Position numbers and translations under genes: made by a program. Below, piece by piece: positions 27,472-29,644 of a stretch of 36,555 nt of DNA (positions are counted from its first letter, which is position 1; each line of letters opens with the position of its first letter). Source of the stretch: a bacterium (GTDB taxonomy: Bacteria; Patescibacteriota; Doudnabacteria; UBA920); assembly GCA_021847435.1 (NCBI GenBank), contig JAJZRC010000005.1, positions 1 to 36,555 on the forward strand, read 5' to 3'. Under the pieces are notes generated by a model that saw only the letters and a list, made by a program, of their open reading frames with translations, was not told the origin of the DNA and made no database searches.

Positions 27472-27885
27472 ATGAAAAGTTACGAGCAAATCGTTTCCTG
27501 GATAAAAGAAAATAAGCAACATTTAGTGCTTGCGGTTTGTTTTGTGTTGATATTTTTGGCCGGTTTCGGCAGCGGCAGGTATGAAAAAGAGTGGCGCCGC
27601 GACCGGTTTAAATCACAAGCTAATTATAACACAAAATCCGCTGCTGTTACAAAAACTTCCGAAGCTGCGGTTGGGGCGGCGGTATTGGGAGAACAGCAGG
27701 TTACGCAGCCCGCAGCGGCTTCCAGCACGCCAGCCAATTGCGCTATAAAAGGCAATATATCATCCACTAAGAAAAAAATTTATCATATCCCGGGAGGAGC
27801 ATTTTATAAAATCGTTAAACCAGAGCAATGTTTTGCCACAGAGAGTGAAGCGGCTGCCGCGGGTTACGTTAAATCTTCCAGATAA
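27472..27885 (+). CDS. TM-anchored protein with C-terminal sunset-like domain
   Basis: N-terminal TM; CAIKGNISSTKKKIYHIPGGAFYKIVKPEQCFATESEAAAAGYVKSSR. Confidence 0.8.
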   Translation: MKSYEQIVSWIKENKQHLVLAVCFVLIFLAGFGSGRYEKEWRRDRFKSQANYNTKSAAVTKTSEAAVGAAVLGEQQVTQPAAASSTPANCAIKGNISSTKKKIYHIPGGAFYKIVKPEQCFATESEAAAAGYVKSSR

Positions 27886-27906: not shown

Positions 27907-27932
27907 GACCGCCCAATTTAGGGCATTTTTTT
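27907..27932 (+). terminator. Terminator abutting the ncRNA promoter
   Basis: GCCC-AATTTA-GGGCATTTTTTTG; T-tract runs into TTGACA. Confidence 0.65.
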
Positions 27933-27959
27933 GACAAAATTAACGATTATATGTATAAT
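27931..27959 (+). promoter_or_regulatory. Consensus sigma70 promoter for the structured RNA
   Basis: TTGACA-N17-TATAAT. Confidence 0.88.
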
Positions 27960-27965
27960 ATTAAA

Positions 27966-28392
27966 CAATCAACCGCGCGCAGGTCCTAGTGACATCAGGC
28001 CTGCCAGCAACGCAATCGGCATGTTTAGCTTCCAAAAGCCTTTGCGGCCGCGGTTTGCAGCGATAGCAGAAGGAGGACATAACCGTGAACGGTTCCGCGT
28101 TCCCGTTCTTACATGCGGCCGCGGCTTAAGGCTTGTTCCCGCCTTGGCCTAACTCCTTCTGCTTGAGTATTTATCCTGGCAATGTTTGCGGAAGCATTGC
28201 CGCACAAGCCTGCAAAGTATTGCCTTTTTAGACCCGTATGGGTCGACGGCCGCCCTTTTGTAAAGATAAGGGCTTTGAGGGTTTGGGATCGCCAGGCGGC
28301 GGAAGGAGAGCGGTGGCGCGCCGCTGCGCCAACGGCGGCTGTAGCGCGCGCCTGCTCCTTCCGCCGCAAGAAATTTCTTGCGGCGTCTTTTT
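27966..28392 (+). ncRNA. Large GC-rich candidate structured RNA (~430 nt), unclassified
   Basis: Promoter to terminator (CGCCGCAAGAAA/TTTCTTGCGGCG-TCTTTTT) with no convincing ORF; 11-bp stem AGCAGAAGGAG/CTCCTTCTGCT enclosing several hairpins and 11-13-bp stem GGCGGAAGGAG/CTCCTTCCGCC. Confidence 0.7.
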
Positions 28393-28409
28393 ATACAACA
28401 TTAAATATA

Positions 28410-29644
28410 TGGCAAAAAAAATTTCAGCCAGCAAAAAAAATATATATTTGGATTTTGCCGCGGCCGCTCCTCTGCGGCCGGAAGCGCAGAAAGCCATGGC
28501 GCCTTTTTGGGCTGCCAGGTTCGGCAACCCTTCTTCTTTGCACGGACAGGGGAGGGAAGCCGATGCTGCCGTAAAAACGGCAAGGCAGCAGATTGCCGAA
28601 CGGATCAGCGCCAAAAGCAGCGAAATTATTTTTACAGGGGGCGGCACGGAGAGCGTCAACCTTGCAATTTTGGGCGCTGTCAGAAAAGCGGCAGCCTTAC
28701 AAAAAAACAAGTTTCATTTGCTGTCCACTTTGGTGGAGCATGAATGCGTGAATAGGGTTTTCGGCGCTTTGGCGGGGGAAGGGCACAATACAGAATTTAT
28801 TTCCGCGGATAAAAACGGGCTAATAGATTTTGAGCGGTTAAAAAAATCCATCCGGCCGGACACCTTTCTTATTTCTATAATCTATGCCAACAACGAAATC
28901 GGCACCATCCAGCCTTTGGCGGAAATAGGGCAGTGGCTTAAAAAAGAAAACCAGCAGCGCAGGCAGCAAGGCCTGCCGCGCATATTGCTGCATACCGATG
29001 CCTGCCAGGCAGCAGGCTTTTTGGATTTGGACGTTAACCGGCTTGGGATGGATTTAATGTCCGTTAACGGCAGTAAAATTTACGGGCCCAAGGGGACCGG
29101 ATTTTTATATGTCCGCCAGGGAGTGGAATTGGAACCTGTTATATTCGGCGGGGGCCAGGAGAAGGGTTTGCGCGGCGGAACCGAAAACGTCCCCGGGATC
29201 GTCGGCCTAGCCAAAGCTTTTGTTTTGGCCCGGGATGAAAAGGATAAAGAAAATCTGAGGCTAGCCAGACTGCAAAGCTATTTCATTGGCCGGATTGGCA
29301 AGAGGATTCCTGGTGTACTTTTAAACGGTCCTTACAATGACGATTTAAAAGTAAATAGGCGATTACCGAATAATATAAACTTCGTATTTAAGGGCGTTGA
29401 AGGCGAGGCTTTAATGCTTTATTTGGATTCTTACAATATTGCAGTATCCACTTCAAGCGCCTGCAGTTCAAATTCAAACGAGGTTTCTCATGTTTTACTG
29501 GCAATCGGAAGAAGCAAAAAAGACGCTTCAAGCAGCATAAGGTTTAGCATGGGCAGAACTACAACCAAGGCCGATTTGGATTATGTGCTGAGGGTGCTAA
29601 ACGTAGTTGTCGCACAGCAGAGGCAGGTTGAGGGCTTAAATTAA
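28410..29644 (+). CDS. Cysteine desulfurase (NifS/IscS-like)
   Basis: HTDACQAAG, SVNGSKIYGPKGTGFLYVR, STSSACSS; ATG 28410 preferred because the listed 28238 start reads through the RNA locus. Confidence 0.93.

What the first reader, a model, noticed from the sequence alone, without database searches (positions are those of the whole stretch)
27931..28392. Unclassified ~430-nt structured RNA upstream of a cysteine desulfurase gene
A consensus promoter (TTGACA-N17-TATAAT) and a perfect intrinsic terminator bracket a GC-rich stretch with no plausible ORF. Exact stems include GCAGGTC/GGCCTGC-type near the 5' end, the 11-bp AGCAGAAGGAG/CTCCTTCTGCT enclosing AACCG-TGAA-CGGTT, CCGCG/CGCGG and AAGGC/GCCTT, then GGCAATG/CATTGCC, GACCC-GTAT-GGGTC, GCCCTT/AAGGGC and GGCGGAAGGAG/CTCCTTCCGCC. 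I do not see RNase P (GAGGAAAGUCC, ACAGAA), tmRNA (tRNA-like T-arm end), SRP or group I/II intron core signatures. This is the best candidate here for a new structured RNA class.
Basis: partly seen in the sequence, partly recalled or inferred. Interest (0 to 1): 0.85.

Follow-up and report, generated by a model that had tools for sequence, protein, structure and literature searches.

The report
New structured RNA hiding ribosome-binding motif
A group of tiny uncultured bacteria (Doudnabacteria) carries a previously unclassified structured RNA gene of roughly 200-500 letters whose one unchanging sequence is a perfect ribosome-docking signal locked inside an RNA hairpin; what it does has not been tested.

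Summary
A consensus promoter (27931-27959), a GC-rich, strongly folding stretch (about 27966-28392, z = -4.1) and a perfect terminator sit just before a cysteine desulfurase gene. No Rfam family matches; the genome's RNase P RNA and tmRNA lie elsewhere. Twelve of the 22 family genomes have a long gap at this locus without a clear gene, nearly all with a TTGACA-17-TATAAT-like promoter, and 11 of them hold AAGGAGGA exactly once, on the sense strand. That word occurs only 21 times in 777 kb of the genome, both strands. It is the 5' strand of a helix whose flanking pairs covary (score 0.531 against 0.186 shuffled, 0/500), while its partner strand drifts through G-U pairs. The desulfurase usually has its own -10 box, so this is an independent RNA gene, not its leader. 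No peptide is conserved. I conclude: a real, fast-evolving, lineage-restricted RNA class whose invariant element is a masked Shine-Dalgarno sequence. Likeliest mechanism: conditional docking to the 16S anti-Shine-Dalgarno (inferred, about 0.35). Only this helix has comparative support; the other stems do not. No expression data were available.

The parts
27931..27959 (+). sigma-70 promoter TTGACA-17-TATAAT of the RNA
   Evidence: 12/12 consensus; a promoter of at least 9/12 with a 17-bp spacer at this place in 11 of the 12 RNA loci, 10/12 or better in 10
27966..28392 (+). structured RNA gene, about 427 nt
   Evidence: z = -4.1; same-locus homologues in 11 relatives
27979..28004 (+). 5' hairpin GCAGGTCC...AGGCCTGC with TGACATC(A) in the loop; ACATCA also in an apical loop in L032, L049, L050, L053
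   Evidence: folds and motif list; suggestive only
28070..28077 (+). AAGGAGGA, invariant Shine-Dalgarno-like core
   Evidence: exactly one sense copy in 11 of 12 RNA loci; rare in the genome
28065..28075 (+). 5' arm of helix P3 (AGCAGAAGGAG)
   Evidence: covariation
28153..28163 (+). 3' arm of helix P3 (CTCCTTCTGCT)
   Evidence: covariation, with G-U drift on this strand only
28298..28308 (+). second, degenerate copy of the purine strand (GGCGGAAGGAG), 5' arm; also in L032 and L041
   Evidence: sequence
28355..28365 (+). 3' arm of the second hairpin (CTCCTTCCGCC), overlapping the terminator stem by 4 nt
   Evidence: sequence
28362..28392 (+). intrinsic terminator
   Evidence: terminators close the homologues too
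27472..27885 (+). conserved upstream gene (137 aa, one N-terminal hydrophobic segment, no Pfam match), left border of the locus
28409..29644 (+). cysteine desulfurase gene (PF00266), right border; not part of the RNA unit

Best explanation
SHOWN BY COMPUTATION: an independently transcribed non-coding RNA (own promoter and terminator) that was probably present in the ancestor of this Doudnabacteria family. It evolves so fast that only one sequence is invariant, AAGGAGGA, held on the 5' strand of a covarying helix (P3). INFERRED: AAGGAGGA is the working element and acts by pairing with the anti-Shine-Dalgarno end of 16S rRNA (...CACCUCCUUUCUA in this genome). P3 masks it, so docking is conditional, and when P3 opens the RNA captures or holds 30S subunits or otherwise reports on free ribosomes. 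Confidence that it is a real RNA class: about 0.85. Confidence in the docking mechanism: about 0.35; the number below is for the two together.
For: AAGGAGGA exactly once, sense strand, in 11 of 12 synteny-defined gaps; chance about 0.7% per 500-nt strand from its rate in the own genome (21 in 777 kb, both strands); P about 2e-21 for 10 of 11 if independent. Promoters at the same place with 17-bp spacers. P3: 91.8% of cells paired, covariation 0.531 against 0.186 +/- 0.039, 0/500, and lost when slid. The motif strand never changes while its partner goes C to U (G-U) in 1-3 sequences per pair, so the constraint is on the SD strand, not only on the helix; the eighth A is invariant though mostly unpaired. 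Comparable upstream-extending helices: 7 of 10 RNAs against 2 of 80 other AAGGAGGA sites, Fisher P = 5e-7. 16S rRNA ends GGATCACCTCCTTTCTA. The desulfurase has its own -10 (perfect TATAAT in 11 of 29 loci, 4.6% in shuffles). RNA-bearing genera are scattered on the desulfurase tree, so the RNA is old with losses.
Against: No expression data. In the folded state the motif is almost fully paired (pairing probability about 1), so docking needs an unmasking step nobody has seen. The fold outside P3 is not supported by the substitutions between the closest pair (P = 0.35). The RNA is absent from many family genomes, so it is not essential. One genus member (L033) has promoter and terminator but no motif.
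Confidence: 0.4

Rival explanations
1. A structured RNA scaffold or ribonucleoprotein in which the AAGGAGG/CCUCCUU helix is bound by a protein; the likeness to a Shine-Dalgarno sequence is incidental.
For: The motif is nearly always in a helix; long, GC-rich folds with low z in most homologues.
Against: One-sided conservation with G-U drift of the partner and an invariant unpaired eighth A point to single-strand recognition.
Confidence: 0.25
2. A short mRNA with a masked start site (type I toxin-like or leader peptide): AAGGAGGA is the RBS of a tiny ORF.
For: Masked strong SDs are usual in such mRNAs (general knowledge); 6 of 10 have ATG/GTG/TTG 5-11 nt after GGAGG.
Against: 3.6 of 10 expected by chance, P = 0.11; peptides of 14 to 84 aa without similarity; a 1-nt insertion between close relatives L049 and L050 changes the frame after about 10 codons; 4 of 10 have no start there.
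Confidence: 0.15
3. A cis-acting leader or attenuator of the cysteine desulfurase gene (riboswitch-like).
For: The terminator lies 17 nt before the start codon; in L034 the P3 3' arm is also the 5' arm of the terminator stem, an antiterminator-like overlap (4 nt overlap in the window).
Against: The desulfurase has its own -10 6-13 nt before its ATG in most relatives, with or without the RNA; overlap with the terminator is 0-2 nt in several homologues; the gene keeps its place after losing the RNA. In the window itself the -10 is weak, so read-through there is not excluded.
Confidence: 0.15
4. A divergent housekeeping RNA (RNase P, tmRNA, SRP, 6S) or intron beyond Rfam's reach.
For: Size and position only.
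Against: RNase P RNA at G000:C56 and tmRNA at G000:C28 are elsewhere; the lineage has neither SRP RNA nor the Ffh M domain; no Rfam match; absent from many family genomes.
Confidence: 0.03

Closest known systems
Large orphan bacterial ncRNAs (OLE, GOLLD, ROOL, raiA)
   Same: Own transcription unit, 200-600 nt, elaborate fold, unknown or partly known function (general knowledge)
   Different: No Rfam match; sequence conservation reduced to one 8-nt word; confined so far to one Doudnabacteria family
Type I toxin mRNAs with sequestered Shine-Dalgarno sequences
   Same: Strong SD masked in a stable helix
   Different: No conserved or hydrophobic peptide, frame not kept
Attenuators and riboswitches before biosynthetic genes
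   Same: Structured RNA ending in a terminator just before a gene
   Different: Downstream gene has its own promoter in most relatives; the RNA has a full promoter right after the upstream gene
CsrB/RsmZ-type sponges
   Same: GGA-containing RNA that could titrate a factor
   Different: One invariant motif in a helix instead of many GGA loops

Membership tests
RNase P RNA (RF00010/RF00011) | match to the covariance model | tested here: not met
   no window match; the genome's own copy is at G000:C56:15394-15799, 104.8 bits
tmRNA (RF00023) | tRNA-like domain with tag ORF; model match | tested here: not met
   ARAGORN 0 in the window; the genome's copy is at G000:C28:26708-27105, 114.8 bits
SRP RNA (RF00169/RF01854) | helix 8 core; model match | tested here: not met
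   no match in window or in 25 genomes; partner protein domain absent too
Any other Rfam 15 family, including 6S, introns, riboswitches and large orphan RNAs | score above gathering threshold | tested here: not met
   0 matches in the window and in 15 homologous loci; best lax match E = 0.09 at a generic terminator
Type I toxin mRNA | Shine-Dalgarno sequence masked in a helix | tested here: met
Type I toxin mRNA | conserved short (usually hydrophobic) ORF behind it | tested here: not met
   frame shift between L049 and L050
Type I toxin mRNA | antisense RNA regulator | not testable with these tools
   needs RNA-seq
Cis-regulatory leader of the desulfurase | downstream gene transcribed from the RNA's promoter | tested here: inconclusive
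   own -10 box in most relatives but only a weak one in the window
Conserved structured RNA class | covariation in at least one helix | tested here: met
   helix P3
Conserved structured RNA class | covariation across the whole fold | tested here: inconclusive
   substitutions of L049/L050 do not favour the single-sequence fold
SD/anti-SD ribosome-docking RNA | binding to 16S rRNA 3' end | not testable with these tools
   complementarity AAGGAGG to CCUCCUU only

The most novel reading that the evidence does not exclude
A non-coding RNA that regulates or stores ribosomes by offering a masked, perfect Shine-Dalgarno sequence to the 16S anti-SD, in a genome where strong Shine-Dalgarno words are otherwise not enriched. 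I know of no RNA class of this kind; the two literature searches made for it brought up none.
Probability: 0.3. Interest if true: 0.85.

Novelty: new variant of a known kind. Interest (0 to 1): 0.62.

Why it matters
It adds an unclassified structured RNA class from a bacterial lineage with hardly any RNA biology on record, with a single invariant element that makes a direct, testable prediction (30S binding through the anti-SD, switched by helix P3). If true, it would be RNA-level control of ribosome availability in ultra-small bacteria.

Tried and rejected
DNA similarity search of 99 genomes: no homologue by sequence. Rfam at gathering and lax thresholds. Desulfurase-anchored GTDB scan gave only two Doudnabacteria records, both already held. 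MAFFT full-domain alignment for a covariance model: the 3' arms did not fall in register, so no model was built. RNAalifold on L049/L050 looked perfect (9 of 9 kept pairs) but the minus strand did equally well and an independent single-sequence structure gave no support: discarded. Copies elsewhere: of the AAGGAGGA sites in 77% of the own genome and the GAAGGAGGA sites of 11 family genomes, none qualified; L163 looked similar but lies in a coding gene. Conserved hairpin loop ACATCA: only 5 of 11, left as suggestive. Overlap of P3 with the terminator as a general switch: complete only in L034, 0-5 nt in the others examined.

Full report
WHAT IS THERE. The promoter (27931-27959, TTGACA-17-TATAAT, 12/12) and the terminator (28362-28385 plus T run) are as described. 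Between them lie about 427 nt at 57.6% GC that fold to -188.1 kcal/mol against -163.2 +/- 6.0 for shuffles. ARAGORN finds nothing, Rfam nothing at gathering score in the whole window, and only chance-level matches with the lax filter. The downstream gene is a cysteine desulfurase, 28409-29644.

WHOSE IT IS. The genome is a Candidatus Doudnabacteria member: its nearest held relatives carry that name in GTDB. It has its own RNase P RNA and tmRNA elsewhere, so the stretch is neither of these.

HOMOLOGUES BY PLACE, NOT BY SEQUENCE. BLAST finds no relative, but the desulfurase does. In 12 of the 22 family genomes a gap of 284-777 nt without a clear gene separates a conserved small gene from the desulfurase: all eight of the window's genus (g1), one g3 and three g6. 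Eleven of these 12 gaps contain AAGGAGGA, exactly once, on the sense strand; the exception is L033. Promoters of at least 9/12 with a 17-bp spacer stand at the start of 11 of the 12, and terminators close them. Two further long gaps (L039, L055) hold reverse-strand ORFs and no motif. On the desulfurase tree the carriers are not one clade (g6 apart from g1 and g3; g5, g8 and g10 without it nested among carriers), so the RNA looks ancestral with repeated loss (several forks are weak).

HOW UNLIKELY THE MOTIF IS. In 777 kb of the own genome AAGGAGGA occurs 21 times on both strands, no more than its reversed control (27), and AAGGAGGT is rarer than its control (10 against 33). A chance hit in a 500-nt strand is about 0.7%; P for 10 of 11 independent RNAs is about 2e-21 (L050 left out as a near copy of L049; independence is approximate, since the loci are related).

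THE HELIX. AAGGAGG is the 5' strand of a helix P3 (28065-28075 with 28153-28163 in the window). Across homologues the pairs before the motif change in a compensated way, for example A-U, G-C, C-G and U-A at position -2, while the motif itself never changes and its partners go from C to U at three positions. Counted on seven homologues without bulges: 91.8% of cells paired against 75.3% shuffled, covariation 0.531 against 0.186 +/- 0.039 (0/500), lost on sliding by 1-3. The 3' arms were located through each sequence's fold, which leans towards pairing; the control for this is that 7 of 10 RNAs, but only 2 of 80 other AAGGAGGA sites from this and related genomes, have an upstream-extending helix of 11 pairs or more (Fisher 5e-7). 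L040, L041 and L056 form the helix with a bulge or mismatch.

WHAT IS NOT SUPPORTED. The rest of the fold. Between L049 and L050 (28 substitutions) a consensus fold seems perfectly kept, but the minus strand gives the same and a fold from one sequence does not (15 of 28 substitutions in pairs, P = 0.35). Low z-scores hold for most homologues but not all (L040 -1.2).

NOT CODING, NOT A LEADER. Start codons 5-11 nt after GGAGG are found in 6 of 10 (3.6 expected, P = 0.11), with unrelated peptides of 14-84 aa; the L049/L050 insertion breaks the frame. The desulfurase has its own -10 close to its ATG: perfect TATAAT in 11 of 29 loci against 4.6% in shuffles, with or without the RNA. In the window itself that box is weak, so some read-through there is not excluded.

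MECHANISM. The pattern (invariant purine strand identical to the complement of the 16S tail, drifting partner, invariant eighth A outside most helices) is what a single-stranded recognition site that is normally masked would leave. The 16S tail of this genome is GGATCACCTCCTTTCTA. My best inference is conditional docking to the anti-Shine-Dalgarno, with helix P3 as the latch. The unmasking trigger, the effect on ribosomes and expression itself are unknown. Rivals: a protein-bound helix, a masked tiny mRNA, and a leader with P3 as antiterminator (clear only in L034).

KNOWN OR NEW. No Rfam family, and the papers found name no such RNA in Doudnabacteria or other Patescibacteria, as far as titles and abstracts show (the library is open-access only, and these papers were not read through). 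I file it as a new class within the known kind 'large orphan structured RNAs'.

Noticed in passing
whole genome G000 and relatives: The signal recognition particle seems absent: no SRP RNA (RF00169, RF01854) in 25 genomes, no Ffh M domain (PF02978) in 25 relatives or in 118 genomes of the phylum, no FtsY over cut-off in 25, with all 14 controls positive for both protein families.
   Followed up: partly
L048, L051, L052 (upstream of the desulfurase, other family, genus g20): A different conserved structured stretch of about 300 nt lies between the divergent methyltransferase and desulfurase genes; a TTGACC-16-TAAAAT promoter in all three points to the minus strand. No Rfam match.
   Followed up: partly
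L138, L146, L147, L153, L157, L160, L171, L177, L186, L190: A dispersed phrase CCGAAGCTTTAGCGAAGGAGGA (with small variations; able to form a hairpin CCTCCGnAGC...GCGAAGGAGG) recurs in several family genomes.
   Followed up: no
whole genome G000: Strong Shine-Dalgarno words are not enriched and partly depleted (AAGGAGG 82 against 113 reversed; AAGGAGGT 10 against 33), although the 16S tail is normal.
   Followed up: partly
28390-28408 and relatives L032-L056: The desulfurase probably has a leaderless mRNA: TATAAT 6-13 nt before its ATG in many relatives.
   Followed up: partly
27472-27885: A 137-aa protein with one hydrophobic segment and a conserved C-terminal motif (C.IKGNIS...IYH.PGGAFY...KPEQCF) is kept before the desulfurase across the family; no Pfam match.
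   Followed up: no
L034 upstream region: Here the P3 3' arm (CTGCCGCC) is also the 5' arm of the terminator stem, so the two helices exclude each other.
   Followed up: no
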